From Geopsychrobacter electrodiphilus DSM 16401 (GTDB lineage Bacteria > Desulfobacterota > Desulfuromonadia > Desulfuromonadales > Geopsychrobacteraceae): DNA of 64,000 nucleotides. Positions 16,814 to 38,703 of this stretch are shown piece after piece. Made by a program: the position numbers and the translations under genes. The notes below the pieces were generated by a model that ran no database searches, was not told where the DNA came from, and saw only the letters and a list, made by a program, of their open reading frames with translations. The stretch is taken from positions 3,632,501 to 3,696,500 of the forward strand of contig NZ_ARWE01000001.1 of NCBI RefSeq assembly GCF_000384395.1, given 5' to 3'. Every line of letters begins with the position of its first letter. Position 1 is the first letter of the stretch.

Positions 16814-17386
16814 CTAGAAATATCGCCCGACCTGCAGGGTGAACGCGTTGATCCCGTGGTTTTCATGATAAAGGTTACCGTTAGACAGATGATAACCTCT
16901 GAAGGCCGCATACCAGCGTACCTTGTTCGATGACAGCCATTCACTGCCGATACCGGCTTGCGGATTAAAGTTGAGCCGCAAGCCCTGCCCTTCGACCTGA
17001 AAATCGCTGTAAACCAGGCCAATGCCCCCTTCAACATAGGGAGAGAGAGTCCGGGTCTCCAGGTTACGAAGATAGTAGAGGGCGAAGATATTGGCCGAGA
17101 CCAGCAATTTTTTACCCGCGGGGTCAGCGAACCCAACACTCCCCTCTATCTTAAACCTGAGAGGTTCCGGTGCAGGGTGCGGCATGATTTGTTCATAGTC
17201 GTAGAGCGCCATCAGGCTCAACTGCCCGATACGAAAGGCAGGTTGTGGAGCGTAACTGGTTCCATACACCATGGCCAGCCCAAGGTGTTGTGGCTGGTCC
17301 AGCGACACCGCGCCGACCGGAAACGGGGCAAGCAGGCATAAAGCGAGCAACAGACAGACCATAGGCCCTCCGGTCTTTGGCATCAT
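16814..17386 (-). CDS. pagL: Lipid A 3-O-deacylase, PagL-like
   Basis: This 190-residue protein has a signal peptide (residues about 1-26) and amphipathic beta strands ending in Phe, as in small outer-membrane barrels. Near the C-terminus GYHLSNGNLYHENHG supplies His166, Ser168 and Glu175, matching the His-Ser-Glu catalytic triad of PagL. PagL removes the 3-O-linked acyl chain from lipid A. The start codon overlaps the stop of the upstream KS-like gene by 4 bases (ATGA), so it is translationally coupled to the large lipid operon. That suggests outer-membrane acyl remodelling alongside delivery of the operon's product. Confidence 0.85.
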   Translation of the reverse strand: MMPKTGGPMVCLLLALCLLAPFPVGAVSLDQPQHLGLAMVYGTSYAPQPAFRIGQLSLMALYDYEQIMPHPAPEPLRFKIEGSVGFADPAGKKLLVSANIFALYYLRNLETRTLSPYVEGGIGLVYSDFQVEGQGLRLNFNPQAGIGSEWLSSNKVRWYAAFRGYHLSNGNLYHENHGINAFTLQVGRYF

Positions 17387-18468
17387 AGATCACCCCGGCT
17401 TAGGTGGATTACAGCATATTCGCCGTCGTTGCCGAAACGCAAACAACCAAGCGCACTGCAGGGGCGTGTCTCGCGGATCACCCCACCCTGATAGTAATCA
17501 CCACCGTCATCACTTGAAGGGAAGAGCAACCCGCGCTGCAAGCTCAGGGCCGCAACAGCCAAATCAAAAGCCGGGCTAACCGGGGAAGCCCCATAGAGTG
17601 GTGAATAACAGGCCACCGGTTGCCCATTTGCCACATATTGACCGTAAGTGGCGCCATTATTAAGGAGGCCCTCGCACCCAAGGATAAGCGGCCTGACGAT
17701 CTCTAACTGCGGCTTGCTACCACAGAGGTTACCCACCTTAACGCTGTTAATTCGACCGTAACGCGCTGGGATGGGGGTCTCTCTTTGCAGCAGGAAGAAG
17801 GCTGCACCCTCGCCGACGATGCCAGTCATCCGACTAAAATCAAGAGGTGTCATCCTCTGTGCCCCAGGAATTTCACAGAACTTCTCCCAGCAATGACCCA
17901 GAACCGGACAGTATTCGTCAACCACCCCCAACAAAACCGCGTCAACCCGCTCTTCTGCCAGCCCTTGCCATGCAGAGAGCAGTCCTGCTGCCAACGATTG
18001 GTCAAACTGACTGATTGTCAAATTCGGTCCGGTAATCTGAAGCTGCATGGAGATATGCGCCGCCGCCGCATTGTGGACTGAATTGGAAAAGGCCGTCGGT
18101 GAGGCGCAAATGTCACCATCTTCAATCACCGAATCAAGGAAGTCGAAGGTGGTGGTCAGTGGGCCGAACCCTGAAGCCAGCACCAGCCCGAGACGACTTT
18201 TATCCAGCGCCGGCTGTGCGGCATCTTCCAGAGCCTGAAACGCCCCGAGCAGTGCCAGCCGCGAGAAGTGATCGATGCGACGCAGGGCACGCTTATTCAG
18301 GAAGTTTTCCAAGGGTGCGCTGTCGGCCTGCAACAGGGGGATATGATGATCCCGCAGCGCAACCGCGACGGGCGAGACTTCACCCTTCTCCAGGGCCCCC
18401 AGCAATGCCTGTTGACCGCAACCAAAGCCTCCAACCAGGCCCAGGCCGTTAATTTGGATGGCAGTCAC
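17383..18468 (-). CDS. KS-like protein without catalytic Cys (chain-length-factor type)
   Basis: This 361-residue protein has a ketosynthase-like N-terminal half with SPTAFSNSVHNAAAAH and TGPNLTISQFDQSLAAG. The active-site Cys position of FabF falls in the QFDQ stretch, so no nucleophile is present. The HGTGT and GH motifs are also missing from the C-terminal half. It therefore looks like the non-catalytic partner (chain-length factor) that pairs with a KS in aryl polyene and type II polyketide systems. It begins with GTG at 18468, overlapping the stop of the adjacent KS by 4 bases, which fits a KS/CLF heterodimer made in fixed ratio. A longer reading upstream of this GTG lacks family similarity. 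Confidence 0.82.
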   Translation of the reverse strand: MTAIQINGLGLVGGFGCGQQALLGALEKGEVSPVAVALRDHHIPLLQADSAPLENFLNKRALRRIDHFSRLALLGAFQALEDAAQPALDKSRLGLVLASGFGPLTTTFDFLDSVIEDGDICASPTAFSNSVHNAAAAHISMQLQITGPNLTISQFDQSLAAGLLSAWQGLAEERVDAVLLGVVDEYCPVLGHCWEKFCEIPGAQRMTPLDFSRMTGIVGEGAAFFLLQRETPIPARYGRINSVKVGNLCGSKPQLEIVRPLILGCEGLLNNGATYGQYVANGQPVACYSPLYGASPVSPAFDLAVAALSLQRGLLFPSSDDGGDYYQGGVIRETRPCSALGCLRFGNDGEYAVIHLSRGDL

Positions 18469-19655
18469 CGGGGCACCTCCAGACCAATCAGCAGGGCCGA
18501 ATTGTTGCCCCCGAAGGCCAGTGATTCGGAAATAGCCAGGGTTCCGCGTACCCCTACCGGTTCTGCTGAAGGATAAACGGAAAGCTCCGGGTCGGCGTGG
18601 GTCAGGCCGACATTGCCTGGCAGTTGTTGTTGTTCGAGGCTGGCCAAGGTGAGGACCGCTTCGATCGCCCCGGCAGCACCCAAGGTGTGGCCGGTGTAGC
18701 ATTTCGTGGCAACCAGCGGCGTCCGGGGGAAGAGTTGACCCAGCACCAGGCTCTCGACCCTGTCGTTATCCGGGGTACCGGTGCCGTGGACATTGATAAA
18801 GCTGACCTGTTGTGCCTTGACGTTGGCAGTTCGCAGCGTTTCGGCCAGCGCCTGACGCAGCCCACGCCCCTCGGGATGGGGCGCGGTCAAATGGTAGGCG
18901 TCGGTGCCGCTGCCGTAGCCGAGCAGGTAGCCGCGCGGGCTTTTCCCTCGCGACCTCAGCGATGCGGCTGATTCAAGCACCAGCATCCCCGCCCCTTCGC
19001 CAAGATTAAGACCACGACGTTGTTGATCAAAGGGCTTACAGGGTTTGGAATCGGCGATCATCAACGAGGCAAAACCGTTATAGGTCGTGCGACAGAGTTC
19101 GTCCGCCCCGCCAACCAGAGCAATATCGCAAACTCCGCTGCGCACCCAGGAAGCCCCCAGCCCGATAGCATCGGTCCCCGACGCACAGGCGTTGACCACC
19201 ACCTGACAGGGGCCATCCAAACGGTAATGACGGGCCACAGCTGAGGCCGGATTGCTACGCAGATAACGCTCAATGGGCGCCATTGAAGGATCAGCCCCGG
19301 AGCGAAAATCTCGATAGAAATCCTCGTTATTCATGGCACTGCCGACCGTTGTCCCAATGCAGACTCCGACCTTCAGCCCGAAAAGATCAGCGTCATCCAG
19401 CCCGGCATCAACCAGCGCCTCGGCTAAGGCGCTCAAGGCCAGACGCGTGGTCCGCAACAGTTCAGGATTATTCCCTTGCCGGGGGAGTGCAGCCAGAACC
19501 TCAAAAACCGGATAAGGACTGGGATGACTGGTTAAAAAAGCCCGTGGCGGACCAGGATTACGCTCACGCCGCAGCATCGATGCAGAGGCGCTCGCCAGAG
19601 TCATTCCGGCGGCGCACAGGCACCCGACCCCGCTGATGGCAACCGCCTGATTCAC
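18465..19655 (-). CDS. Beta-ketoacyl-ACP synthase (FabF-like), partner of the CLF
   Basis: This 396-residue condensing enzyme has an intact triad: Cys157 in NACASGTD, His290 in NVHGTGTPDND and His323 in KCYTGHTLGAAG, with the supporting Lys318. It should carry out decarboxylative condensation of malonyl-ACP with a growing chain. It lies between an acyl carrier protein gene and the Cys-less KS-like gene with 4-base overlaps at both ends, the usual arrangement of an ACP-KS-CLF unit. The substrate and chain length cannot be read from sequence. Confidence 0.9.
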   Translation of the reverse strand: MNQAVAISGVGCLCAAGMTLASASASMLRRERNPGPPRAFLTSHPSPYPVFEVLAALPRQGNNPELLRTTRLALSALAEALVDAGLDDADLFGLKVGVCIGTTVGSAMNNEDFYRDFRSGADPSMAPIERYLRSNPASAVARHYRLDGPCQVVVNACASGTDAIGLGASWVRSGVCDIALVGGADELCRTTYNGFASLMIADSKPCKPFDQQRRGLNLGEGAGMLVLESAASLRSRGKSPRGYLLGYGSGTDAYHLTAPHPEGRGLRQALAETLRTANVKAQQVSFINVHGTGTPDNDRVESLVLGQLFPRTPLVATKCYTGHTLGAAGAIEAVLTLASLEQQQLPGNVGLTHADPELSVYPSAEPVGVRGTLAISESLAFGGNNSALLIGLEVPR

Positions 19656-19909
19656 CGCGGTTGCTTTGACTCAATGAAAGCGGCCAGGGTGTTGATCGAC
19701 TGCAGCGCCGGACGCCCCTCTTCCATATCCTTGATCTCAACCCCGAAATGCTTCTGGATCACCACCACCAGCTCCACCGCATCAAGGGAATCAAGTCCCA
19801 GTCCCTCACCGAACAACGGCGCATCATCTGCGATCTCAGCCGGGGTCACATCTTCCAGATTCAACTCTTCGATCAGAATCTGCTTCAACTTTGCCTTGAT
19901 ATCCATCAT
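19652..19909 (-). CDS. Acyl carrier protein (first of two in the cluster)
   Basis: This 85-residue protein has the 4'-phosphopantetheine attachment motif GLGLDSLDAVEL, with Ser41 as the modified residue. The segment EGLGLDSLDAVELVV and the following FGVEI resemble the ACPs of aryl polyene clusters more than housekeeping AcpP, which is more acidic around helix II. It overlaps the downstream KS gene and the upstream acyltransferase gene by 4 bases each. It presumably carries the growing chain for the KS/CLF pair. Confidence 0.92.
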   Translation of the reverse strand: MMDIKAKLKQILIEELNLEDVTPAEIADDAPLFGEGLGLDSLDAVELVVVIQKHFGVEIKDMEEGRPALQSINTLAAFIESKQPR

Positions 19910-20868
19910 GACTCCTTGTCGTTATTTATCGGTTCGGGCTGCTGACGCAGCCAGAGGTCAAAAAAATTAAAAAACTGGTAAGGCTGTTCCCGGCAATACT
20001 GCTCGAGTTCTGCAGCAAATTCCGCAGCATAGGGGCGAAAGGTCTCGGGCTTGCGCCCTTTCAGCGCGGGGACGCGCACCACCCGCGCCAGGTTCAGGCG
20101 GTAGCTGGCCGAGCCATCCTTATAGCTGAAAAAGACCACCACCGGCGCCCCGCTGGTCGCGGCGATCTTGTAGGCGCTGAAAGGGATGGCAACCGGTTGG
20201 CCGAGAAAGTCGACCGCCACCGTGTTGCGTTCACTGCCGAGCTGGCGATCCCCCATGACACAGACAATCTCTCCCTGCTTGAGCGCGCTGAGCATCTCCA
20301 ACGTTCCGCCCAGATAGCCGGTCGGGTCGATAACCCGGTAAGGGCAGTCGAGCCCCGCATGTTCGTAATACTGGCGATCAATATCACCATCTTCTCGGCG
20401 CATCAGCATATGTACCGGGCGCTCTAGAAAATTCAGGGACGACATCGCAACCTGCCAGCAGCCGACATGGGCGGTCATCATGATCATCCCCTGCCCTGCA
20501 TCGCGCAGCTTGAGCAACGCCTCACGGCCTTCGAGGGTGACGCTCAACGTCTGCGGCCCGAGGATGCCGACCGCCGCCCGGTCGATCAAGACCTGCCCGA
20601 AGGATAGAATCAAACGATAGCAGTGCCAGAGGCGCCGCGGACCGGACCTGCCCGGAAAGCGCCGGCTCAGATAGTAGCTGGCGCGCTGGCGGGCCAGACG
20701 GCTGAACAGCACATAGTAGGCGACAACGACATAGAGCAGCAGATAGGCCGCACGTCTGCCACCCAGCCGGATCAGCAGGTAAAACAGCTGATGCTGCCAG
20801 TTGCGCCCGATGCTGCGACTGCTCCAGTTCGCCTTGGGCGCGGCGCTATCCTTTTGCGACTGTGGCAT
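19906..20868 (-). CDS. LpxL/HtrB-type lysophospholipid acyltransferase
   Basis: This 320-residue protein has an N-terminal membrane anchor (residues about 38-56) and a domain of the LpxL/HtrB lipid A acyltransferase family, including MGDRQLGS and the downstream AIPFSAYKIA. The catalytic HxxxxE/D motif reads TAHVGCWQ: His134 is kept but the partner position is Gln139 instead of the usual Glu or Asp. Related acyltransferases in aryl polyene clusters attach the finished chain to a lipid or sugar acceptor. The Gln may alter activity. The start overlaps the glycosyltransferase gene by 23 bases. Confidence 0.85.
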   Translation of the reverse strand: MPQSQKDSAAPKANWSSRSIGRNWQHQLFYLLIRLGGRRAAYLLLYVVVAYYVLFSRLARQRASYYLSRRFPGRSGPRRLWHCYRLILSFGQVLIDRAAVGILGPQTLSVTLEGREALLKLRDAGQGMIMMTAHVGCWQVAMSSLNFLERPVHMLMRREDGDIDRQYYEHAGLDCPYRVIDPTGYLGGTLEMLSALKQGEIVCVMGDRQLGSERNTVAVDFLGQPVAIPFSAYKIAATSGAPVVVFFSYKDGSASYRLNLARVVRVPALKGRKPETFRPYAAEFAAELEQYCREQPYQFFNFFDLWLRQQPEPINNDKES

Positions 20869-22039
20869 CGTTCTTCTTTATCATCAGGGTGAGCAACAGG
20901 GTCAGGCCCCCGACCAGTCCGGCCAAAAGCGGAGCCAGCACCAGAGAACCTAAAAACCACTCGTACAGGCGTTGCACCGCCTGGTAGCCGAGGGTCTGCA
21001 GTGAAAATTCGGTCAACCATTCCCCTTGGCGCATGAAATACCCCAGCTCAATACACAGGGCCGGCACCAGGGGCGGCATGCACAGCTGGCTGCTGCTGAT
21101 CGCCGCCGGTTTATTCAAGCGAAAAAAACTGCAGGCGAACAGGATCGCCAGAGTATGACAAAAGAGCAGCGGCAGGGTGCCGAGGAACACGCCGAGCGCC
21201 GCCGAAGCGGACAGCTGCCCTGGCGAGCTATGTTCACGCAGCAGTTGCCGCAGGGAGCGCAAGGGGTGCAAGGCCGAAACGGAAGCGCCCGGAGTCCCTT
21301 TCACACTCTGCAGTTCGATGAGTTTCGGGTGGGGCCAGGGCACAATCGAACGCAGGGTCAGATGGGTATTCAGCAGGGTCAGACGCCAGTTGTCCATAAA
21401 ACCCCGAAAGTGCGAGATCCGTTCATCTGCCGGAGGATAATAAACCGAGATATCGACATCCCGCAAATCCACCCCGGCCCAGGCCGAACGCACCAGCACT
21501 TCGACTTCAAAATTGTAACGCCGGGTCCAGAAATTCAAACCGGCAAAAATCAGCAACGGATAGGCGCGAAACCCGCTCTGCACATCTCTAAGACGGCTGC
21601 CGGTCTGCAGACGCAGCCAGAAATTGGAAAACTGCCGGCCGAAACGCGATGCTCCCGGGATCGAGGCCTGCTCAAAATCGCGATGGCCGACAATCAGCGC
21701 CTGCGGATGGGCCGCAATTTCGGCAAAAAATTTCGGTAAGTCAGCCGGGTCATGCTGGCCGTCGGCATCGAGGCAGACCATATGACTGTAGCCCTGCTCC
21801 AGGCCCCAGTGGGCCGCAGTCTGCAATGCCGCGCCCTTGCCCCGGTTTTGCGCATGTCGCAACAGCTCAACCGGCAGCCCGACCAGGCTTTCGGCCGCGC
21901 CGTCGTTGCTGCCGTCATCGACCACCAGCACCCGTTCATGCTGGGTTAAGACCCCTTCAACGACCCGCCGCAGGGTCGTCGCGTGGTTATACGCCGGAAC
22001 CACGACAAATGTCCCCCCCTGATCTTCAAGAAGAGCCAT
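20846..22039 (-). CDS. GT2 glycosyltransferase fused to DUF2062
   Basis: This 397-residue protein starts with a GT-A glycosyltransferase family 2 domain (VVVPAYNHATTL, VVDDGSNDG, and the metal-binding LDADGQHDP), similar to dolichol/polyprenyl-phosphate sugar transferases. From about residue 255 a DUF2062 membrane domain follows, with GVFLGTLPLLFCHT and two C-terminal helices. The same fusion occurs next to acyltransferases in aryl polyene clusters. Here it likely glycosylates a lipid intermediate at the inner membrane. It overlaps its neighbours by 14 and 23 bases. Confidence 0.88.
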   Translation of the reverse strand: MALLEDQGGTFVVVPAYNHATTLRRVVEGVLTQHERVLVVDDGSNDGAAESLVGLPVELLRHAQNRGKGAALQTAAHWGLEQGYSHMVCLDADGQHDPADLPKFFAEIAAHPQALIVGHRDFEQASIPGASRFGRQFSNFWLRLQTGSRLRDVQSGFRAYPLLIFAGLNFWTRRYNFEVEVLVRSAWAGVDLRDVDISVYYPPADERISHFRGFMDNWRLTLLNTHLTLRSIVPWPHPKLIELQSVKGTPGASVSALHPLRSLRQLLREHSSPGQLSASAALGVFLGTLPLLFCHTLAILFACSFFRLNKPAAISSSQLCMPPLVPALCIELGYFMRQGEWLTEFSLQTLGYQAVQRLYEWFLGSLVLAPLLAGLVGGLTLLLTLMIKKNDATVAKG

Positions 22040-23477
22040 AACGCTTGTTACTCAAGGCAAAACGTAAAAATTGTCCGGCACTGCCAGCAAAGCGCAGCCA
22101 GCTGTCGGGGGATTTCCAGAGCATGGCCAGATAACCGAGCAGCACCCGCTTGCGTTTGAAATGGCTCTTGTAGAACTCGATAAACAGCTTCTCCATCTGC
22201 GCCTTCTCCATCCCCTGCGGGATAAACTGAAAGTGCATGCAGTCCATCCTGGGCCAGTCTTCGTCGAATGCCCCGAGTTGATGAATCGTCTCGTAGATCG
22301 GTGACCCCGGAAAGGGGGTAAACTTGGCGAGGTTGAAGTCGTCGATCGGCAGCGAAAAGACATAATCCATACTGCGCCGGATTGAAGCCTCAGTCTCGCC
22401 GGGCAGCCCCATCATCAGCAACCCCTTGGTGCGGATACCGCAACTCTTGATGGTGCGGATGGTCTCGGCCAGCATATCGAGATCAGCGTTCTGCCGGTGC
22501 CGGGCGAGCAGCTCTTCATCGCCGCTCTCGATCCCCAGACTGACCATCCAGCAGCCGGCGGCCTTCATCAGCTGCAGCAGGCCGCGATCGACATGCTCGG
22601 CGCGTACCGCACAGTTGAAGGTCATGCCCAACGGTTGCTCGATCATCAAGCGGCAGAATTCTTCGACCCGGCCGCGATGAAAGGTGAACTGGTCATCGTA
22701 GAAGTTGATATGCCGGATCCCGAAGCGATCTTTTAAATAGAGCAGGTGCCGATAAAGGTAATCGGCCGAATTGTACCTGAAGGTCTGACGAAACACGCTG
22801 CGGTCACAGTAACTGCAGCTGTAGGGGCAACCACGACTCGAGATACAGCTGCTGTTGGGCGCCTTGGGGTAGTTGAAGATCGGCAGCTTGTAGGCGTCGG
22901 GATAACCGGCAAGTTTATGGTAGGCCGGAAAGGGCAGCTCATCGAGGACCAGCGCCTGGCGCCGGTAGCCGTTATTGACCAGACCGCCGTCGGCGGCGCG
23001 CCACACCAGTCCCTCGACGTTTTCAGGCGAGTCGCCGGCCAGCTGCGCCAGTTCGAGCATGCTCTGCTCACCCTCGCCGATCACCGCATAATCGATCAGA
23101 GGAGAAAACTCCAGAACTTTCTCTTTTAAGGCCGAAACATGCGGGCCGCCGAACGCCACACGCAGACCCGGCAGTTCGGCCTTGGCCAGTTGCGCCAGTC
23201 GTACCCCATCATGAAAGCTGGCGGTGGTGCAGCTGATCCCGAGCAGAGCCGGGCGCTGCTCACGCAGCAGTTGCTGCAGGCGCTGATCGGCGTCGGGGAA
23301 CGCATAACAGTCGAGGATCTCGCAGCAAAGACCGGCGCGCTCCAGGTAAGCGGCGATGCTCGCCAGGCCGAGGGGCGGCATGATATTCGCCTTGCGTGAG
23401 ATGTCCCGCGCTGCCGCCGCCAGCTGATAACCGAGCGGGTGCAGCAGCAGAATATTTTTAGCGTTCAGTTGCGCCAT
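22026..23477 (-). CDS. Radical SAM protein, B12-binding-domain type (third of three)
   Basis: This 483-residue protein has an N-terminal Rossmann-like cobalamin-binding-type domain (residues about 8-150, with PPLGLASIAAYLERAG and VAFGGPHVS) and then a radical SAM core. The cluster motif is C217-PYS-C221-SY-C224 (CxxxCxxC). The classical DxHxxG cobalamin-ligand motif is not evident, so B12 may bind base-off without a His ligand or not at all. Family members perform methylations, ring contractions and C-C bond formation at unactivated carbons. It starts 18 bases after the preceding radical SAM gene. Confidence 0.88.
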   Translation of the reverse strand: MAQLNAKNILLLHPLGYQLAAAARDISRKANIMPPLGLASIAAYLERAGLCCEILDCYAFPDADQRLQQLLREQRPALLGISCTTASFHDGVRLAQLAKAELPGLRVAFGGPHVSALKEKVLEFSPLIDYAVIGEGEQSMLELAQLAGDSPENVEGLVWRAADGGLVNNGYRRQALVLDELPFPAYHKLAGYPDAYKLPIFNYPKAPNSSCISSRGCPYSCSYCDRSVFRQTFRYNSADYLYRHLLYLKDRFGIRHINFYDDQFTFHRGRVEEFCRLMIEQPLGMTFNCAVRAEHVDRGLLQLMKAAGCWMVSLGIESGDEELLARHRQNADLDMLAETIRTIKSCGIRTKGLLMMGLPGETEASIRRSMDYVFSLPIDDFNLAKFTPFPGSPIYETIHQLGAFDEDWPRMDCMHFQFIPQGMEKAQMEKLFIEFYKSHFKRKRVLLGYLAMLWKSPDSWLRFAGSAGQFLRFALSNKRYGSS

Positions 23478-23495
23478 GGTTTTCCTGGTTAGAGA

Positions 23496-26101: not shown

Positions 26102-26149
26102 CGGTTTTCAACTCCTTTTATGTCAGCGGCAAACTCCTCCGCGAAAAAT

Positions 26150-29490: not shown

Positions 29491-29493
29491 GCC

Positions 29494-31869: not shown

Positions 31870-32528
31870 TTAAATTCCGGGGCCTCAAAGGTCGCGACTG
31901 GCAGCGCCGTATTCAGCTGAACGTTAGTAAAACGCAGCAGGGTACTGTCCCCGCCCTGCTCCTTGAGCAACACCTCGGCAACATGGCTGCGATCCCCGGC
32001 AAACAGAATCTGCAGCTCCTCGATGAAACCTGCCTCCCCTTTATCAAGGGGGGTCAGACGCAACCTGACCGGCGACTCGGCCAACAGCTCCATGCGGTAA
32101 CGACTCTGCAGCCAGTCGAGATCAACCCGCGCCCAGGCCAGCAGCTGCCGGGCAATGATCCCCATGATCGGATCATTGGCCACCGAAAAGTCACTGCGCT
32201 CACGGCTGAGGCTGTTCCAGCGTTCCCCCTTGTCACCACGCAAGACAAAACCCGAGTCTATGGGGGTCAGCAGTTCCCAGCGCAACCGGTCCGGCTGTTG
32301 ATAGGCGAAGCGCCCTGCGGACACCAGCTTCTCGGAAAAAATTGCCAACTCTTTCTCCTGGATAAAATCACTCTTCAGGGAATGAGTCTGTCCTGCGGTA
32401 TCCTGCAGCTGCCGCAGCAGGGTGTGCAAGTCCGTGGTTTCGGCGGCACCGAGAGGTGCGGCGACCAGGAACAAAACCACCAGCAGGAGGTTCAAACAGC
32501 ATAATTTGCGCATTTTCAGTTGATCCAT
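31866..32528 (-). CDS. LolA-like outer-membrane lipid carrier
   Basis: This 220-residue protein has a signal peptide (cleavage near residue 30, VAAPLGAAE) and a LolA-type half-barrel pattern: LKSDFIQEKELAIFSEKL, SAGRFAYQQPDRLRWELL and a C-terminal LRFTNVQLN. Such proteins carry lipidated cargo across the periplasm. Here it is linked to an MMPL exporter rather than LolCDE, as in aryl polyene clusters. ATG 32528 overlaps the preceding gene by 13 bases. ATG 32513, five codons later, is an equally reasonable start. Confidence 0.85.
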   Translation of the reverse strand: MDQLKMRKLCCLNLLLVVLFLVAAPLGAAETTDLHTLLRQLQDTAGQTHSLKSDFIQEKELAIFSEKLVSAGRFAYQQPDRLRWELLTPIDSGFVLRGDKGERWNSLSRERSDFSVANDPIMGIIARQLLAWARVDLDWLQSRYRMELLAESPVRLRLTPLDKGEAGFIEELQILFAGDRSHVAEVLLKEQGGDSTLLRFTNVQLNTALPVATFEAPEFK

Positions 32529-32938
32529 ATCTTGATTTCACCCCGTGCGATCAGGGTTTTATCTGTCCAGATTTCACCGTCAGCGACGGCAAAACCATCC
32601 AGTTCGGCCAGAGTGCGGATGTGAATCTGCAGACAATCCCCGACCCTCGTGCTGTGTAAGCGGACGAGCTTCTTGATCCCGACCAGAAAACCCTGACGCA
32701 CCGGGAATCCGGCGCGCCGGTCAAGATAACCCCGGAGCGCGGCGAAGCTCTGAGCGATCAGTTCGATCAGGGCGACATCCTCAAGTTGACCCTGTTCATC
32801 GACCAGCGGACAGTCGGCACGCACCAGCGCCTCGACGACGCCGTTCTGGCCGTCAATCTCAAGTAAGCGCTCCACCAGCCGCATCGGCAAACGATGCGGC
32901 ACCAGGGCTTCGGCCGCCATCGGCAGGCTCAGGTTCAT
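32516..32938 (-). CDS. ApeP-type hotdog dehydratase-like protein
   Basis: This 140-residue protein begins LVPHRLPMRLVERLLEID, the HRxPM(R)L(V)DR pattern of beta-hydroxyacyl-ACP dehydratase-like hotdog proteins, with ELIAQSFAALRGY as the central helix. This is the ApeP-like family that pairs with ApeI to dehydrate intermediates in aryl polyene synthesis. ATG 32938 is chosen because GGAGAG lies six bases upstream. Longer in-frame starts at 32950 and 32974 lack a binding site. Confidence 0.8.
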   Translation of the reverse strand: MNLSLPMAAEALVPHRLPMRLVERLLEIDGQNGVVEALVRADCPLVDEQGQLEDVALIELIAQSFAALRGYLDRRAGFPVRQGFLVGIKKLVRLHSTRVGDCLQIHIRTLAELDGFAVADGEIWTDKTLIARGEIKIWIN

Positions 32939-32976
32939 CACTCTCTCCATTGGGGCGATAGCTTCAGCAGGCACCC

Positions 32977-33723
32977 TCAGCCGGGTGTGCCGCGCATCTC
33001 GTCCAGGGCAGCGGTCATGCGACCCTTCACCAGTTTACGCAGACGGCTGTGCCCCTCATCATCGTTGAAGGCGCGCGTATCAATCGGCTCCAGCGCGCGC
33101 AACCGGACCTGACAAGGACGAAACAGCTTGCGTCCGGGCGGCAGCAGCCGGTCGGTGCCATCGATGCACAGTGGGATCAGCGGCACCCCGGCGTTAATCG
33201 CGACCTTGAACCCGCCGGAGTAGAAACGCTGCAGTTGACCGTCGCGACTGCGATGTCCCTCTGGGAAGAACAGCACCGTCCCCCCGGCCGCAAAAGCGCT
33301 CTTACTGTTGCACAGGGTCTCATCCCAGCTGCTCCCCTCGACATCCAGATAGCGCGCCAGGCGCATGAAGCCGCTGTACCAGAACATGCGGAACGGCCAG
33401 GAGCGCACCGCGAATGTGATGTCATGCACCGGCAGCAGCGCCATGCAGTAGGTATCAAAAAACGACAGGTGATTCACCACGAACAGGCATGGAGTATCAG
33501 CCTTGATTAACGCCATCTGCTCGCGGCGGAAACGTACAAAGGGGCTCATCAGCAGCAACCAGCCGCGGCCATACAACCAGATAAACCAACGCGCCAGCTT
33601 GTCGGCCGGCTGACGCAGAAACAGCAGCCCCAGGCCGAAAGCAAAGGGGAAAGCCAGGATTCCGAGCAGGGTCCAGAGCAGCAGCGTGCCGTAACACCAG
33701 AGATTCATCAGCAGCAGTATCAC
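32977..33723 (-). CDS. PlsC-type 1-acylglycerol-3-phosphate acyltransferase
   Basis: This 248-residue membrane-associated protein has a long N-terminal hydrophobic segment (residues about 1-35) and the acyltransferase motifs NHLSFFDT (HX4D), FFPEGHRSRDG (block III) and VPLIPLCIDGTD (block IV). It transfers an acyl chain, usually to lysophosphatidate. In this operon it may place the cluster's unusual acyl chain into phospholipid, in contrast to the LpxL-like enzyme. The start is GTG 33723, supported by GAGG five bases upstream. Confidence 0.88.
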   Translation of the reverse strand: MILLLMNLWCYGTLLLWTLLGILAFPFAFGLGLLFLRQPADKLARWFIWLYGRGWLLLMSPFVRFRREQMALIKADTPCLFVVNHLSFFDTYCMALLPVHDITFAVRSWPFRMFWYSGFMRLARYLDVEGSSWDETLCNSKSAFAAGGTVLFFPEGHRSRDGQLQRFYSGGFKVAINAGVPLIPLCIDGTDRLLPPGRKLFRPCQVRLRALEPIDTRAFNDDEGHSRLRKLVKGRMTAALDEMRGTPG

Positions 33724-33787
33724 TCAAGTCCTCACTTGCATAGCGGATGATCCAGAATAAATCCCAGACTCGACCTGTTCCGATAGC

Positions 33788-34042
33788 TCAACCCTGTTCA
33801 GCAATTTTTTGCAGGACAAAGTTGTGGATATCACTAAGGGTGCGGATGGCCCGCACCGATTCTTCTTCGCGAATCTTGAACTTGAAGGCGCCTTCCAGAA
33901 CGATAACCATATCGACGGTGTCGAGGCTGTCCAGGCCCAGATCTGTATAGATATTAGCCTCGGGGGTCATAGCCTCCCGGTCGAGTTCGAATTCATCGGC
34001 CAGACTGGAATCGATCAGTTCAATCACGTCCGCTTCAGTCAT
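33788..34042 (-). CDS. Acyl carrier protein (second of two in the cluster)
   Basis: This 84-residue acidic carrier has the attachment motif TDLGLDSLDTVDM with the phosphopantetheine Ser in DSLD. It is closer to canonical AcpP than the first ACP of the cluster, with FKFKIREEESV after the motif. It overlaps the upstream KS gene by 8 bases. The two distinct ACPs imply two chain pools, for example priming versus elongation. A 64-base gap separates it from the PlsC gene downstream. Confidence 0.92.
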   Translation of the reverse strand: MTEADVIELIDSSLADEFELDREAMTPEANIYTDLGLDSLDTVDMVIVLEGAFKFKIREEESVRAIRTLSDIHNFVLQKIAEQG

Positions 34043-35270
34043 ACATGCTGCTCCTCATGATCAGGGTGCAATTTATGCCCCCCATGGCAAAATTATTTTT
34101 CAATACAATTTTCGGTGTTGTCTGCTGGTTCTGCTGAAGATGCCAGAGGCCACAACACTGCTCATCAACCTCGTCGAGATTGCGCGTCCGGATCAGTTCA
34201 CCCTGACGCATCATACCGATGCAGGCCGCCAGTTCAATCGAACCACTGGCCGCCATTGTGTGGCCCAGATGCCCTTTAAGGCTGCTGACCGGCACCCGAT
34301 CGGCGACCAGACGCCGGATCGCCTCGGCCTCGGCGACATCCCCCTGCAGGGTTCCGGTGGCGTGGGCGTTGATGTAATCGAGATCGCTGCTAGCCAGCCC
34401 GGCATCTTCCAGGGCAAGACGCATGCAGTCGTACATTGCTCCGGCATCGGGATTGGCGATACTCGAGGTGTCCGAGGTGGTCGCGAAACCGATGATCTCG
34501 GCCAGCACCCTTGCCCCGCGCGCTGCGGCAACACTGCGTTTTTCGAGCAGCAGGATGCCGCTCCCCTCACCACACACCAGACCATCACGGGCGCGATCGA
34601 AGGGACGAGGTGCGGCGTCCGGTTGCTGATTGTAGGCGGTCGAGGCAGCATGCATCACATCGAAGGTCGCCACCGTCAGGGGGTGAAACTCGTCGGCGCC
34701 ACCGCAGAGGATGGCATCCTGGCGGCCGAAGGCGATCTGTTCATAGGCATAACCTAGCGCCTGACAGCTGGTGGCACAGGCCGCCGAAGGAGCCATGACC
34801 CGGCCGGTAATCCCCAGCGACTGGGCGACATTTGCCGCGCAGGAGTGCCCCATGATCTGAAAGAACAGGCCGGACTTCATCCGTTCAAGACTGTGATCGC
34901 GGAAATAGTCGGCGAAAAACGCCTCGCTGGTTTCGGTACTCCCCAGGGTTGAACCGATCATCACCCCGGTGCGCCCGCTGGCCAGCAGCGCCTCCGGATA
35001 AGCAGCCATCGCCAGCGCCTGCTGACTGGCCAGATAGGCGTAGACCGACATATTTGACATGGAACGCCGGATTTTGCGGGGGATATTTTTAGGCTCGACC
35101 CCCTCAACTCGTGCGGCCAGGCGCGAGCGCAAGCCGCCGATATGGTCTAGCTCGGGTACGATTTTGACCCCTGATTCCCCGACGTACAGAGCTGCCATCA
35201 ACGCGTCAAAGGTGTGCCCGAGGGGGGAGATAATCCCGATTCCAGTCACAACCACAGATTCTAACGCCAT
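34035..35270 (-). CDS. Beta-ketoacyl-ACP synthase II-like (FabF-like)
   Basis: This 411-residue ketosynthase has Cys165 in APSAACATSC, His in NAHATGTLQGD and Lys/His in LKGHLGHTMAASG, so it should be active. The N-terminal VVVTGIGIISPLG and overall length are those of FabF. It overlaps the ACP gene downstream by 8 bases and the desaturase-like gene upstream by 10 bases. It is distinct in sequence from the other three KS proteins, which suggests separate chain-length or branching roles. Confidence 0.92.
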   Translation of the reverse strand: MALESVVVTGIGIISPLGHTFDALMAALYVGESGVKIVPELDHIGGLRSRLAARVEGVEPKNIPRKIRRSMSNMSVYAYLASQQALAMAAYPEALLASGRTGVMIGSTLGSTETSEAFFADYFRDHSLERMKSGLFFQIMGHSCAANVAQSLGITGRVMAPSAACATSCQALGYAYEQIAFGRQDAILCGGADEFHPLTVATFDVMHAASTAYNQQPDAAPRPFDRARDGLVCGEGSGILLLEKRSVAAARGARVLAEIIGFATTSDTSSIANPDAGAMYDCMRLALEDAGLASSDLDYINAHATGTLQGDVAEAEAIRRLVADRVPVSSLKGHLGHTMAASGSIELAACIGMMRQGELIRTRNLDEVDEQCCGLWHLQQNQQTTPKIVLKNNFAMGGINCTLIMRSSMYD

Positions 35271-36736
35271 ATTTTTAGCTCTTTTCGCAGATGTTCATGG
35301 CCCAGGATCGAACCACAGGTCAGGTAGCTGGCAACCAGGGCCCCCAATAGACCGGGAGCGGCAATCGCCTGACCGGACAGAAACAGGCCGGGCAAACGGG
35401 TCACCGGGGACGGATTATACTGGCCAATGAAGCGCCCGACCCCGTAAATTGCTCCCGCCGGAGCATTGGAATAATCGCGCAGGGTCAATGGGGTTGCCAG
35501 TTCAAGGAGTTCCAGGTCAGCGAGTTCTGGGCAATTCGCCGCGAACATCCGCAAAAGGGTTTCTCCGATCGCAGTTTTATGCGCCTGGTAATCCCGGGCA
35601 TGACGTTGATCTTTGCTGTCCCAGGCCGCGACTTCAGCATAACTCGCGGGAACGATGCCGATCAAACCCATAAGCGCACCATCCCGCCCCTGATCTGCTG
35701 CGGTCAGGTAGATGGAGCGCTCAGTCAGTGGCTTCTGTGCGTCATGACCGAAGATCCCGGCTTGCTGCTGAATAAAGAGGTTTCTGTGGCGCAGGAATTC
35801 GAGGGGTTTTGCGCTTCTGGCGAACACTATATAGGCAGATGAGGTCTGACGTAAATTATTTAAACGCTTCAGATAAGCCGGTCGCAACACTCCCGGCGGC
35901 AACATCTTTGGCAGCAGCGCCGGATTCAGGGTGACCACCAGCTCTCTGGCCGGTATTTTCTCGCCGCTGAGCAGCTGAACACCGCTGACAGCACCAGCAT
36001 CCGTGCGCACGGCTGTGACCTCTGCGCGACACCGAACTTCCACCCCCGCGTTGGTCAGAAGTTCAAGTAGAGCCTCGACCAGCGCCCGGCCACCCCCGAC
36101 AATCCCATGCACCGAGTGGTAATAGGAACCGGCAACCTGAGCGTTCAGGGTTTCCGGCGCATCTTCCGGGGGAACACCATAGAGCAGGCTGTGCATCGAG
36201 AGCAGACCCTGCAACTGCGGCCAGGTACTGAATTCCTGCAGGCGTTCATACAGGGATGGTCCATGAACCGTCTGCATGCCGAAAGCGCTGATATCGGCAT
36301 CCAGATCCAGATAGGGGAAGGAGCACCATTGCTGAGCGATCAGATCCAGATAACTCTCAAGCTTGGCGCGGGCGGCGGGGAACCTCTCCCCCAGCTCAGC
36401 CTTGATCGCCGCGAAGCCGACCGGCAGCGCAAAGGTCTCACCGGTTGCCGCGATGCGTAACCGATCGAACCCCCGCTCGGCATAGGGGAAAATCTCCAGC
36501 CTGGCGGCCAGCCCCAGATGCCCCAAAAATGAGCCCAAGGGGCCAGCTGCTCCCAGGCCACCGACGTAGTGGAAACCGCTGTCGAAATACAGACCGTCAC
36601 GGCTGAAGCCACGCACCACCGGTGCCGGCTGGTGGTGTCGCTCGAGGATCAGCACCTTACGACCGCTGCGGGCGAGCAGCAGTGCGGAGGTCAGACCGGA
36701 GAGCCCCGCTCCGATAACGATAGAATCATAAGCCAT
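35261..36736 (-). CDS. Phytoene desaturase/carotenoid isomerase-like FAD oxidoreductase
   Basis: This 491-residue flavoprotein has the dinucleotide motif GAGLSG (residues 9-14), an ERHHQP FAD-ribose Glu, and a C-terminal GLFLSGQAIAAPGLLGALVAS segment typical of CrtI, CrtISO and retinol saturase proteins. No carotenoid synthases are nearby. The probable substrate is therefore the polyene or acyl chain made by the KS genes, which it may desaturate, isomerise or reduce. ATG 36736 lies 4 bases after the upstream KS stop, and the fold starts at that Met. A longer frame to 36781 would run into that KS gene. Confidence 0.88.
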   Translation of the reverse strand: MAYDSIVIGAGLSGLTSALLLARSGRKVLILERHHQPAPVVRGFSRDGLYFDSGFHYVGGLGAAGPLGSFLGHLGLAARLEIFPYAERGFDRLRIAATGETFALPVGFAAIKAELGERFPAARAKLESYLDLIAQQWCSFPYLDLDADISAFGMQTVHGPSLYERLQEFSTWPQLQGLLSMHSLLYGVPPEDAPETLNAQVAGSYYHSVHGIVGGGRALVEALLELLTNAGVEVRCRAEVTAVRTDAGAVSGVQLLSGEKIPARELVVTLNPALLPKMLPPGVLRPAYLKRLNNLRQTSSAYIVFARSAKPLEFLRHRNLFIQQQAGIFGHDAQKPLTERSIYLTAADQGRDGALMGLIGIVPASYAEVAAWDSKDQRHARDYQAHKTAIGETLLRMFAANCPELADLELLELATPLTLRDYSNAPAGAIYGVGRFIGQYNPSPVTRLPGLFLSGQAIAAPGLLGALVASYLTCGSILGHEHLRKELKIWR

Positions 36737-36740
36737 AAAC

Positions 36741-37955
36741 TCAGGAAAACCGGAGGACAAGCGCAGAGTTGGTGCCGCCAAAGCCGGCTGAATTACACAG
36801 CACCTTCGATGGGGCCTGATGAATGGTCTCGCGAATGATGTTCAGTCCGGCAGTGTCAGCGCTCGGCCGGGTATAGTTGATATTCGGCGCAATAAATTTC
36901 TGCTGGGCCATGATCGTCGCATAGACCACCTGCGAGGCCCCCGACATCCAAAGTTCATGACCGGTCATCGATTTCAGGGATGAAATCGGTGGCGTGCTGG
37001 CCCCGAAGACAGCCCGGATATTGGCCGCCTCGGCAGCATCACCCGCCGGGGTCGACGTCGCATGGGCAGAGAGATAATCGATCTCGGCCGCCGCGAGGCC
37101 GCTCTGATCCAGGGCCATGCGCATCGCCCGACTGATCCCGTCGTGACTCGGCACCGCTAGCTGTCCCCCATCCGAGGAGAAACCATAACCGAGCAGTTCA
37201 CCCAGAATGCAGGCTCCCCTTTTTTCAGCCAGATCGTAACGCTCCAGCACGACGCTTGTGGCACCGCCGCTCGGCACCAGGCCATCGCGTTCGGCGTCGA
37301 AGGGGCGGCTGGCAGCGCAAGGGTCCTCAACGCGCGGCGAAAAGGCCCCCAGCCCGTCAAAACTGCACATCGATTGCCAGTTGATCTCCTGGGCACCGCC
37401 ACAGATCACGCGTTCCTGACGCCCGAGACGGATCAGATCGGCGGCCTGCCCGACGGCGTGTCCGCCACTGGAACAGGCCGAACTGAGGGACCAGCAGGCG
37501 CCGCGGGTTTGCAACAGGGTGTTGAGGTTCATGGTGACGGTCGAAGTCATAGAACGGAAGATCTGGCCACTGCCGATGGAGTGAGTGTCTCCCTTTTCGG
37601 CCAGGACAGCGACCTGTTCCACCGCCGCGACACAGCTTGAATCGCAGCCGTAAATCAGGCCGGTCATATCATTCGCGATTGCTGCCGCGTCAAGCCCGGC
37701 CTGCGCCAGCGCATCCCGTGCCGTGGCATAGGCCCAGACCGCAAAATCGGGCATGCTCTTGCGCTGCTTGCGTGACAGCAGGCTGTCATCAAAGTTACTG
37801 ATCTGCCCGGTCAACGGACTGCGAAAACCCATCTCGACCCGCCGCGGATCAATGACAATTCCGGAGCGCCCGGCGCGCAAGGCGGCGCCCACTTCCTGAA
37901 GATTGTTCCCTAGGCAGGAGACGATTCCGATTCCGGTGATAGCAACGCGATACAA
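36741..37955 (-). CDS. Beta-ketoacyl-ACP synthase (FabB/FabF-like)
   Basis: This 404-residue ketosynthase has Cys161 (SLSSACSSGG), His in SAHATSTPAGD and Lys/His in LKSMTGHELWMSGA. The AHATSTPxGD and GHELWxSGA variants resemble FabB (KAS I) and the matching KS of aryl polyene clusters. The start is placed at TTG 37955, where the KS fold begins (YRVAITGIGIVSCLG) with AGGA a few bases upstream. The frame extends to 38000 without an ATG. It follows the ketoreductase gene by 16 bases. Confidence 0.9.
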   Translation of the reverse strand: MYRVAITGIGIVSCLGNNLQEVGAALRAGRSGIVIDPRRVEMGFRSPLTGQISNFDDSLLSRKQRKSMPDFAVWAYATARDALAQAGLDAAAIANDMTGLIYGCDSSCVAAVEQVAVLAEKGDTHSIGSGQIFRSMTSTVTMNLNTLLQTRGACWSLSSACSSGGHAVGQAADLIRLGRQERVICGGAQEINWQSMCSFDGLGAFSPRVEDPCAASRPFDAERDGLVPSGGATSVVLERYDLAEKRGACILGELLGYGFSSDGGQLAVPSHDGISRAMRMALDQSGLAAAEIDYLSAHATSTPAGDAAEAANIRAVFGASTPPISSLKSMTGHELWMSGASQVVYATIMAQQKFIAPNINYTRPSADTAGLNIIRETIHQAPSKVLCNSAGFGGTNSALVLRFS

Positions 37956-37971
37956 TGAGAATTCCTGTCGT

Positions 37972-38703
37972 TTAAATATGCACGCCGCCGTTGACGGCAA
38001 AGACCTGACCCGTGATGTAGCTCGCCCGCTCAGAACAGAGAAAACCGACGAGGCCCGAGACCTCTTCCGGTGTTCCGAACCGCCCCAGAGGGATCAATGG
38101 CAGAATCTGCGCCTGCGACAGTTCGGCGGTCATTTCAGTCGTGATAAACCCCGGCGAGACGGCATTGACCAGAATATTCCGGCGCCCGACTTCTGCGGCC
38201 AAAGAACGGGTCGCGCCGATCAGTCCGGCCTTGGCCGCCGAATAGTTGACCTGGCCAGCGACTCCGGATTCACCCGAAGTCGAGACAATATTGATGATCC
38301 GCCCCTGACGCTTCCTCAGCATCCGGGCGACCACCAGACGGGTAACATTGAAAAAGCCGTTGAGGTGAACGGCGAGGACATTGCCCCAGTCGGACTGACT
38401 CATCATCGCCATGATGCCATCGCGCGCAAAACCGGCATTATTCACCAGCACGAAAGGCACCTGCTCCTTGAGCAAGGGTTCCAACGCGGCCTCAACCGCG
38501 ACGGGATCAGCGACATCAAAAGGAACCAGGATGCAAATTCCCCCGGCGGCTTCAATCTCTTTAGCGACTTGCTCAGCCGCCAGATGATCGCTGCGATAAT
38601 TCAGCCAGATCGCAAAACCGGCTGACGCCAGCTCACGCGCAATCGCAGCGCCGATTCCTCGACTCGCCCCGGTCACCAGAGCTATCCTCGCATTTTCAGT
38701 CAA
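37972..38703 (-). CDS. 3-oxoacyl-ACP reductase (FabG-like)
   Basis: This 243-residue SDR ketoreductase has the NADPH motif TGASRGIG at residues 11-18, NNAG, and the catalytic Ser plus YSAAK. The C-terminal SPGFITTEM and SYITGQVFAVNGG are FabG-like. It would reduce the beta-keto intermediates formed by the cluster's KS enzymes. It is the first gene of the long operon and starts with TTG 38703, with AGGCGAGG about ten bases upstream. The 296 bases upstream, shared with a divergent lipoprotein gene, are AT-richer and probably hold the promoter, but no clear -35/-10 pair could be chosen. Confidence 0.93.
   Translation of the reverse strand: MTENARIALVTGASRGIGAAIARELASAGFAIWLNYRSDHLAAEQVAKEIEAAGGICILVPFDVADPVAVEAALEPLLKEQVPFVLVNNAGFARDGIMAMMSQSDWGNVLAVHLNGFFNVTRLVVARMLRKRQGRIINIVSTSGESGVAGQVNYSAAKAGLIGATRSLAAEVGRRNILVNAVSPGFITTEMTAELSQAQILPLIPLGRFGTPEEVSGLVGFLCSERASYITGQVFAVNGGVHI

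What the first reader, a model, noticed from the sequence alone, without database searches (positions are those of the whole stretch)
17383..38703. Twenty-two-gene hybrid aryl-polyene/ladderane-like lipid operon
Seen: one uninterrupted minus-strand run with mostly 4-base overlaps, encoding four triad-complete KS proteins, two Cys-less KS-like proteins, two ACPs, a KR, two dehydratase-like hotdogs, a thioesterase, two acyltransferases, GT2-DUF2062, MMPL, LolA-like, DUF3261, a carotenoid-desaturase-like flavoprotein and three radical SAM proteins. Known: the KS/CLF/ACP/DH/KR plus MMPL/LolA/DUF3261 set is that of aryl polyene clusters, while radical SAM plus CrtI-like genes with FabF/ACP genes have been proposed for ladderane lipids of anammox bacteria. 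Inference: the operon makes an exported polyene-derived or cyclised lipid whose structure is not predictable from known clusters.
Basis: partly seen in the sequence, partly recalled or inferred. Interest (0 to 1): 0.92.

Follow-up and report, generated by a model that had tools for sequence, protein, structure and literature searches.

The report
Anaerobe flexirubin-like polyene lipid operon
A tightly packed block of 23 genes in a relative of the anaerobe Desulfuromusa looks like a radical-SAM-equipped cousin of the pathways that make flexirubin and aryl-polyene pigments, a family that also seems to include the locus suspected of making anammox ladderane lipids; what it makes is unknown.

Summary
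In detail: 22 co-directional genes of the stated families, plus a 23rd (PagL-like, 16814-17386). It is not a one-off hybrid. Its second radical SAM protein belongs to NCBIfam TIGR04072 (656.7 bits, cut-off 360), and the core order recurs widely (KS3-KSx1-rSAM3-rSAM2 contiguous in 44 of 80 fetched loci). Rattray et al. (2009) already noted such clusters in Geobacter, Pelobacter and Desulfotalea beside the anammox "ladderane" locus. New here: colinear relatives, Desulfuromusa kysingii among them, carry flexirubin-type starter genes (ammonia-lyase, FlxY-class ligase) and/or dialkylresorcinol-type genes (DarB, DarG, DarH) in or beside this operon. DarB-family genes occur in 11 of 15 cluster-bearing genomes of the family and 0 of 5 tested without it. 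A planctomycete locus that matches the published Kuenenia gene list has a FlxY-class ligase. The family thus looks like anaerobic flexirubin/aryl-polyene pathways with radical SAM tailoring. The window's genome keeps the polyene, radical SAM and export core but lacks a Tyr/Phe-type ammonia-lyase, FlxY, DarB and DarH. Most likely product: an exported polyene lipid without a Flx-type aryl head. Ladderanes are not shown. New variant of a known kind.

The parts
37972..38703 (-). KR, SDR ketoreductase (highest NCBIfam score: flexirubin FlxB, 302 vs cut-off 340; meets a FabG model, 279 vs 273)
   Evidence: TGASRGIG and YSAAK motifs
36741..38000 (-). KS1, FabB-like ketosynthase, complete triad
35261..36781 (-). 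CrtI-like FAD oxidoreductase (nearest solved folds 4rep, 4dgk)
34035..35270 (-). KS2, 40% identical to the last KS of an aryl-polyene cluster
33788..34042 (-). ACP1
32977..33723 (-). PlsC-type acyltransferase
32516..32974 (-). HD1, hotdog dehydratase-like (weak FabZ match; 28% to the dehydratase next to KR in the aryl-polyene cluster)
31866..32528 (-). LolA-like carrier (best NCBIfam model flexirubin LolA2, 98 vs 125 bits)
29494..31869 (-). MMPL/RND-type exporter
28828..29490 (-). LolB/DUF3261-like lipoprotein
   Evidence: position
28451..28831 (-). FabA/FabZ-like hotdog with GHFPGYPILPGV motif
27993..28454 (-). 4HBT thioesterase
26866..27996 (-). KS3, complete triad
26150..26869 (-). KSx1, truncated KS-like (chain-length-factor-like), Asp for Cys
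24842..26101 (-). rSAM3, highest identity of all window proteins in most related loci; AF2 pLDDT 87, nearest solved fold AprD4
23496..24845 (-). rSAM2, TIGR04072 rSAM_ladder_B12 (656.7 vs 360 bits)
22026..23477 (-). rSAM1, B12-binding radical SAM, nearest curated model HpnJ, far below cut-off (170 vs 578)
20846..22039 (-). GT2 glycosyltransferase fused to DUF2062
19906..20868 (-). LpxL-type acyltransferase
19652..19909 (-). ACP2 (47% to the first ACP of an aryl-polyene cluster)
18465..19655 (-). KS4, complete triad
17383..18468 (-). KSx2, KS-like/chain-length-factor-like, Asp for Cys (start taken as 18468)
16814..17386 (-). PagL-like protein, 23rd gene; follows KSx2 in 14 of 80 related loci

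Best explanation
One operon for an exported, outer-membrane polyene lipid of the flexirubin/aryl-polyene kind, in an anaerobe's version. Proposed working: KS enzymes with chain-length-factor-like partners (KS4/KSx2, KS3/KSx1) and the ACPs extend a starter with malonyl units; KR and the hotdog pair (FabA-like plus HD1) turn each keto group into a double bond; no enoyl reductase is in the operon, so double bonds accumulate. The CrtI-like flavoprotein and the three radical SAM enzymes tailor the polyene (desaturation or isomerisation; C-methylation, ring formation or other radical chemistry). GT2 and the PlsC/LpxL-type acyltransferases attach it to a carrier, and MMPL, LolA, the lipoprotein (perhaps PagL) take it to the outer membrane. 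In colinear relatives the starter is probably aromatic (ammonia-lyase plus FlxY-class ligase) and the polyene probably esterified to a dialkylresorcinol (DarB, DarG, DarH). The window's genome lost or never had those modules, so its product is most likely a non-aryl version, or takes an aryl acid from elsewhere. Shown: gene content, order, residues, relatives, presence/absence. Inferred: every chemical step, export and product.
For: 15 of 23 window proteins have BLASTP homologues (E<0.01) in one annotated aryl-polyene cluster of Pseudoalteromonas, L135. FlxB is the highest-scoring NCBIfam model for KR, flexirubin LolA2 for LolA. Full colinearity with Desulfuromusa kysingii, G337, G328/L055 and G316/L050; FlxY-FlxA sit between PlsC and HD1 in the first two, and DarG-DarH-ABC follow PagL in all four. 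Relatives: DarH 474 (cut-off 300), DarG family 154 (70), StlD/DarB family 588 (450) bits. StlD/DarB over cut-off in 11 of 15 cluster-bearing family genomes, 0 of 5 tested without (one-sided Fisher 0.008); FlxY-class ligases (426-470 bits) in 9 of 15, 0 of 5 (0.03). The cluster-borne ammonia-lyases examined have the Gln of Tyr/Phe lyases in 14 of 14; the lower-scoring, HutH-type ones have Glu in 7 of 7 (rule from a passage of PMC3992019). Own genome: one HutH-type lyase, no FlxY-class ligase, no DarB, no DarH. Outside the operon PF00109 finds FabF and six weak hits, so no Pfa-type synthase.
Against: No chemistry at all. The window lacks the starter and resorcinol genes that define flexirubins. 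Many flexirubin models stay below cut-off: FlxB 302/340 and LolA2 98/125 in the window, while KR does meet a FabG model (279/273); in relatives FlxY 470/520, FlxA 473/700 (two His-lyase models score higher, 504/524 and 491/539), flexirubin DarG 145/170, the narrower DarB model 496/550; FlxY over cut-off in 0 of 20 genomes in each of two searches. 'Radical SAM' and 'phytoene' do not occur in the main text of the flexirubin paper. Missing starter and Dar genes could mean decay, though all 23 frames are open. Whether the KS set follows the starter is unclear: KS1 and KS2 are slightly closer to starter-less (81-83%, 80-83%) than to starter-bearing relatives (78-80%, 70-77%), KS3 is not (66% vs 67-68%) (four genomes).
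Confidence: 0.58

Rival explanations
1. Same pathway, but still an aryl polyene: the aryl starter comes from another locus or the medium (for example through a PaaK-type ligase elsewhere in the genome).
For: Window proteins stay close to those of FlxA/FlxY-bearing relatives (KS1 78-80%, KS3 67-68%); the genome has three PaaK-like ligases elsewhere (203, 201 and 103 bits on the FlxY model).
Against: No FlxY-class ligase (relatives 426-470 bits) and no Gln-type ammonia-lyase found in a single-contig genome rated 100% complete; PaaK-like ligases occur in the five cluster-less genomes too. A chorismate-derived starter was not searched for.
Confidence: 0.2
2. The operon makes a cyclised, ladderane-like lipid through the radical SAM enzymes.
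For: rSAM2 belongs to TIGR04072; a planctomycete locus whose gene order matches the published Kuenenia cluster contains TIGR04072, CrtI-like, MMPL, GT2, KR and KS/KS-like genes; cobalamin radical SAM enzymes are proposed for ladderane ring formation (PMC13142503 passages).
Against: Rattray et al. found no ladderanes in Desulfotalea (PMC2649909); the efforts to reconstruct the pathway with Kuenenia genes in E. coli were not successful (PMC4790861 abstract passage); rSAM1 and rSAM3 were not found in the anammox-like loci, and the second radical SAM there scores best with AhbD/NirJ2-type models.
Confidence: 0.1
3. The operon supplies polyunsaturated acyl chains for C31:9-type hydrocarbons, as Rattray et al. 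suggested for Desulfotalea.
For: Desulfotalea makes C31:8/C31:9; this genome shows no Pfa-like synthase.
Against: Shulse and Allen link C31:9 in Geobacter to Pfa-like type I clusters (PMC3098273 passages). By my own reasoning, KS/KR/DH without isomerase gives conjugated, not skipped, bonds, and a hydrocarbon needs no MMPL/LolA/GT2 set. Ole genes were not searched.
Confidence: 0.05
4. A decaying remnant of a flexirubin-like pathway with no present product.
For: Starter and Dar genes are missing here; a relative (G335) has a darB homologue broken by stops; presence in the family is patchy, 15 of 44 genomes.
Against: All 23 genes are open with tight junctions and intact KS, KR and ACP residues; rSAM3 is 83-90% identical to the other eight rows of its tree clade.
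Confidence: 0.07

Closest known systems
Flexirubin clusters (Chitinophaga pinensis flxA-flxY, Flavobacterium johnsoniae)
   Same: Several KS, KR (FlxB highest model), hotdog dehydratases, acyltransferase, LolA, glycosyltransferase, exporter; colinear relatives add FlxA-like, FlxY-class, DarB, DarG, DarH.
   Different: No FlxA, FlxY, DarB or DarH found in the window's genome; three radical SAM proteins and a CrtI-like flavoprotein added.
Aryl polyene (APE) clusters, here Pseudoalteromonas sp. CuT4-3, L135
   Same: 15 of 23 proteins with BLASTP homologues, including both ACPs, both hotdogs, KR, KS types, LolA, MMPL, GT2, LpxL-type acyltransferase.
   Different: No ammonia-lyase or AMP ligase in the operon; second KS/KS-like pair, radical SAM set, CrtI-like protein and PagL added.
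'Ladderane' clusters (Kuenenia kuste3335-3351; TIGR04072; antiSMASH class), also described in Geobacter, Pelobacter, Desulfotalea
   Same: TIGR04072 radical SAM, KS and KS-like genes, ACP, KR, MMPL, CrtI-like, GT2.
   Different: Window has no FlxY-class ligase, no SAM methyltransferase, no AhbD/NirJ2-like radical SAM; it has rSAM1, rSAM3, LolA, 4HBT, LpxL-type acyltransferase, PagL. Kuenenia's named proteins themselves were not compared.
Arcuflavin (Azoarcus sp. BH72) xanthomonadin-dialkylresorcinol cluster
   Same: Glycosyltransferase, LolA, acyltransferase and exporter conserved with polyene clusters; dar genes with ABC transporter and BtrH-like protein, as in the window's relatives (PMC3949708 passages).
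   Different: Starter from chorismate by ArcB; no radical SAM named in the passages read.

Membership tests
TIGR04072 'ladder' lipid radical SAM operons | TIGR04072 protein over curated cut-off | tested here: met
   656.7 vs 360 bits; also over cut-off in 7 of 8 named relatives' genomes searched
TIGR04072 'ladder' lipid radical SAM operons | KS/ACP/KR-rich lipid operon around it, conserved in other genomes | tested here: met
   rSAM3 followed by rSAM2 in 58 of 80 loci; KS3-KSx1-rSAM3-rSAM2 contiguous in 44 of 80
Anammox-type ladderane cluster | gene set of kuste3335-3351 incl. the CoA ligase, SAM methyltransferases and second radical SAM | tested here: not met
   9 window gene types found in anammox-like locus L217; FlxY-class ligase and AhbD/NirJ2-like radical SAM missing from the window; the two methyltransferase positions were judged by position and eye
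Anammox-type ladderane cluster | ladderane product | not testable with these tools
   needs lipid analysis
Flexirubin | aromatic ammonia-lyase (FlxA) and 4-coumarate-CoA ligase (FlxY) | tested here: not met
   own genome: one HutH-type (Glu) lyase and PaaK-like ligases
Flexirubin | dialkylresorcinol genes (DarB etc.) | tested here: not met
   StlD/DarB family best 39 bits vs 450 cut-off; DarH none (that search rang in no control genome, but the model fits L045 at 474 bits). DarA and DarG not searched in the own genome.
Flexirubin | polyene core: KS set, KR, two hotdogs, ACPs, export proteins | tested here: met
   hotdogs weak; FlxB and LolA2 are top models but below cut-off
Aryl polyene (APE) cluster | KS with chain-length factor, KR, dehydratase pair, two ACPs, LolA/MMPL export | tested here: met
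   against L135; DUF3261 only by position
Aryl polyene (APE) cluster | aryl starter supply (ammonia-lyase or chorismate enzyme, plus ligase) | tested here: inconclusive
   no Tyr/Phe-type lyase or FlxY-class ligase; chorismate route not searched
Pfa-type PUFA synthase | multidomain type I KS protein | tested here: not met
   13 PF00109 hits in the genome: FabF, six in the operon, six weak hits in frames of 390-409 aa

The most novel reading that the evidence does not exclude
Flexirubin/aryl-polyene pathways and the anammox 'ladderane' locus are branches of one anaerobic polyene family: an ACP-bound conjugated polyene is made first and then rearranged or ring-closed by radical SAM enzymes. Anammox ladderanes would then be modified (aryl-)polyenes whose 'phenylacetate-CoA ligase' is a FlxY-class enzyme, and the window holds a version stripped to a non-aryl polyene plus radical SAM core, whose product would be a polyene-derived, possibly cyclised outer-membrane lipid unknown to chemistry.
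Probability: 0.2. Interest if true: 0.88.

Novelty: new variant of a known kind. Interest (0 to 1): 0.6.

Why it matters
Radical SAM 'ladderane-like' clusters are reported in non-anammox bacteria with no known product (PMC2649909, PMC9902471). Tying them by shared gene order to flexirubin-type starter and dialkylresorcinol-type genes turns 'unknown lipid' into a testable prediction (a coloured polyene ester in cultivable Desulfuromusa), and gives a comparison set, with and without starter genes, to separate what the radical SAM enzymes do from what the starter does. If the anammox locus belongs to the same family, as its gene order and FlxY-class ligase suggest, the search for ladderane precursors can be narrowed.

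Tried and rejected
Considered and rejected: (1) a unique horizontal hybrid: no marked G+C step across the operon and widespread synteny. (2) Pfa/type I PUFA synthesis: no such gene found. (3) A Tyr/Phe lyase elsewhere in the genome: the only lyase found (L136) has the His-lyase-type Glu and stands beside a gene that I read by eye as urocanate hydratase. (4) Promoter and terminator scans: promoters at chance, terminators little above it.

Led nowhere or weak: fold search of rSAM3 gives AprD4, MgmA and TsrM as nearest neighbours, which does not decide between methylation, dehydration and cyclisation; no DxHxxG motif in any of the three radical SAM proteins. Fold search of the CrtI-like protein gives two carotenoid desaturases first, then amine/nicotine oxidases and others. 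BLASTP of KSx1 against the aryl-polyene chain-length factor gave no hit at E<0.01. In one search the L135 chain-length factor aligned poorly at the Cys site and is not used. One search extracted a wrong frame for the L135 lyase; that row was dropped, as were repeat rows of the same gene (L158, L172).

Loci are cut at 10 kb flanks, so the genes upstream of ACP1 were read in full for four relatives only. 5 of 29 cluster-less family genomes were tested for DarB and FlxY. DarA, DarG and ole genes and a chorismate-derived starter were not searched in the own genome. Tree groups follow submitters' titles, so several 'Deltaproteobacteria' rows are filed under Myxococcota.

Recalled, from no call: the letters ApeC-ApeR; that PDB 6qsp, 7f27, 7f28 and 6kxd are aryl-polyene/ishigamide KS structures; the idea of a heterodimeric hotdog dehydratase; that the lineages listed are mostly anaerobes.

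Mended on checking: overlap count (16 of 21, not 17), spread of the gene order (was put as all 80 loci), FabG and His-lyase models that score well, missed cut-offs of the narrower Dar models, KR not seen in L215 and L218, the KS identity comparison.

Full report
What is there. The window lies in a 4.24 Mb single-contig genome. By the tool's kinship labels its family includes Desulfuromusa kysingii: G298 ('same family') and G339 (the genome of named locus L046) give the same FlxY hit at identical coordinates. On the minus strand, 22 genes run from 38703 to 17383 and a 23rd, PagL-like, to 16814. Order of transcription: KR, KS1, CrtI-like, KS2, ACP1, PlsC, HD1, LolA, MMPL, LolB/DUF3261-like, FabA-like, 4HBT, KS3, KSx1, rSAM3, rSAM2, rSAM1, GT2-DUF2062, LpxL-type, ACP2, KS4, KSx2, PagL-like. 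KS1-4 keep the Cys/His/Lys/His residues; KSx1 and KSx2 have Asp in place of Cys and no His. KR, ACP and FabA-like motifs are present.

It is a known kind. rSAM2 is a member of the TIGR04072 equivalog (656.7 vs 360 bits). Of 297 genomes drawn from the phylum, 251 have some rSAM3-like match, but only 35 besides the own genome have one of 47% identity or more. A scan of named genomes with an rSAM3 alignment found at least 553 relatives, of which the best 80 were fetched; their titles include Desulfuromusa, Desulfuromonas, Geobacter, Geothermobacter, Syntrophus, Halodesulfovibrio, Nitrospirae, Omnitrophota, Victivallis, Kiritimatiellia and Phycisphaerales. In these 80, rSAM3 is followed by rSAM2 in 58, and KS3-KSx1-rSAM3-rSAM2 is contiguous in 44. 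In a tree of 81 rSAM3 proteins the window sits in a nine-row clade with Desulfuromusa and Desulfuromonas titles (100/97). Rattray et al. 2009 (PMC2649909; abstract, background, results part 1 and discussion part 1 read) described such clusters in Kuenenia, Desulfotalea, Geobacter and Pelobacter. Cariaco Basin metagenomes show antiSMASH 'ladderane' clusters expressed in non-anammox phyla, function unknown (PMC9902471 passages).

What the relatives add. Between PlsC and HD1, where the window has 2 bases, relatives carry a FlxY-class ligase and/or an ammonia-lyase: 17 of the 27 loci in which that interval is visible have one or both, 10 have neither. In D. kysingii FlxY scores 470 (cut-off 520); the lyase scores 504 with a His-lyase model (cut-off 524), 491 with HutH (539) and 473 with FlxA (700), so no model's cut-off is met. 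The 14 cluster-borne lyases that I examined have Gln at the site said to separate Tyr/Phe lyases (Gln) from His lyases (Glu); the seven lower-scoring ones, the own genome's included, have Glu (rule from a passage of PMC3992019). Downstream of PagL, relatives carry DarG (DarG family 154 vs 70; flexirubin DarG 145 vs 170), DarH (474 vs 300) and an ABC transporter; DarG or DarH is seen in 13 of the 80 loci. A StlD/DarB-family gene (588 vs 450; the narrower DarB model 496 vs 550) stands just upstream of KR in L050's genome. Regions from D. kysingii, G337, G328 (= L055) and G316 (= L050) are colinear with all 23 window genes.

Co-occurrence. In the own family, 15 of 44 genomes have an rSAM2 orthologue of 53% identity or more. 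StlD/DarB is over its cut-off in 11 of these 15 and in 0 of 5 cluster-less genomes tested; it lies on rSAM2's contig in six of the 11 (12-15 kb away in five, 49 kb in one) and on other contigs in five. FlxY-class ligases (426-470 bits, below the 520 cut-off) are in 9 of 15 and 0 of 5. One-sided Fisher values: 0.008 and 0.03. G335 has a darB homologue broken by stops. In the own genome the best DarB is 39 bits, the best FlxY 203, DarH none, and the only lyase is HutH-type. The DarH search rang in none of the 14 control genomes, so its negative rests on the model fitting L045.

Chassis. Against one annotated aryl-polyene cluster (Pseudoalteromonas, L135), 15 of 23 window proteins have BLASTP homologues at E<0.01, not counting the CrtI-like protein, which matches over a 35-residue stretch only. 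KR scores highest with FlxB (302 vs 340) but also meets a FabG model (279 vs 273); LolA scores highest with flexirubin LolA2 (98 vs 125). No enoyl reductase is in the operon. Elsewhere the genome shows only a FabF-type KS and six weak PF00109 hits. This fits a polyene pathway better than a Pfa-type or saturated-lipid pathway.

Radical SAM and CrtI-like proteins. They occur in clusters with and without the starter genes, so I infer that they act on the polyene or its attachment rather than on an aryl head. rSAM3 is modelled well (pLDDT 87), nearest to AprD4, then MgmA and TsrM. rSAM1 scores highest with HpnJ (170 vs 578). The CrtI-like protein models at pLDDT 84 and is nearest to carotenoid desaturases. 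Substrate and reaction remain open for all four.

Anammox link. TIGR04072 is over its cut-off in 20 of 392 genomes of the phylum of L081, a Phycisphaerales record. Locus L217 (in a 4.4 Mb single contig) holds, in order: deacetylase, KS, KS-like, a 357 aa protein, KS, a weakly KS-like 195 aa protein, ligase, radical SAM, TIGR04072, KR, ACP, dehydratase-like, SAM-protein-like, MMPL, CrtI-like, GT2 (dehydratase and SAM protein read by eye). This agrees with the functions listed for kuste3351 down to kuste3335 in PMC4790861 (section read), except that the ACP listed as kuste3350 was not looked for. L215 and L218 share most of this order, but no KR was detected there. The 'phenylacetyl-CoA ligase' position in L217 scores 422 for FlxY (cut-off 520) against 206 for the best PaaK model. 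rSAM1 and rSAM3 were not found in these three loci; two other planctomycete loci (L220, L221) have the window-type core with rSAM3.

Prior art. Searches pairing flexirubin or dialkylresorcinol with Geobacter, Desulfuromonas, 'Desulf', anammox or ladderane listed no title or abstract start that makes this link. Of the 8 papers and the 5, I read passages of PMC7593590, PMC11968836 and PMC5383146, which do not make it; the others I saw as listings only. [quoted passage not shown] The library is open-licence PubMed Central only, so this is not proof of absence.

Verdict. A real, intact, widespread operon family; the window is a variant with the polyene, radical SAM and export core but without the Flx starter genes, DarB and DarH. 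Best reading: an exported polyene lipid of the flexirubin/aryl-polyene kind with radical SAM tailoring (0.58). I do not file it as a flexirubin or as an anammox-type ladderane cluster, since defining features of each were tested and not met.

Noticed in passing
G482, G608, G618, G448, G577 (L212, L213, L214, L216, L219): Planctomycete genomes with a TIGR04072-like radical SAM (316-329 bits, below the 360 cut-off) with no other window-type gene found within the 20 kb fetched; in L212 and L214 it adjoins a gene that, read by eye, looks like a type III PKS/KASIII-type condensing enzyme.
   Followed up: no
G335:C121:28848-29885: A darB homologue interrupted by 5 stop codons in the best-matching stretch, about 12 kb from an rSAM2 orthologue: resorcinol genes decaying beside the cluster.
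   Followed up: no
L102, L107, L108, L111, L116, L119, L120, L122, L124: Branch with Desulfobulbaceae/Desulfocapsa titles: rSAM3 near LolA and KR, with an AMP-binding protein and a DegV/DAK2-type protein (fatty-acid-kinase-like) instead of the KS3-KSx1 neighbourhood; they fall in a separate 12-row clade of the rSAM3 tree.
   Followed up: partly
L088, L089, L095, L098, L103, L106, L109: Seven loci (mostly Nitrospirae titles, also Desulfobacterales, Desulfuromonadales, Omnitrophota) carry an unclassified ~440 aa protein after KSx2 (no NCBIfam match for the one tested), and six of the seven also a FAD-binding oxidoreductase.
   Followed up: no
window 38940-39992 (+): Divergent lipoprotein-like ORF next to the operon start with no Pfam or NCBIfam match.
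   Followed up: no
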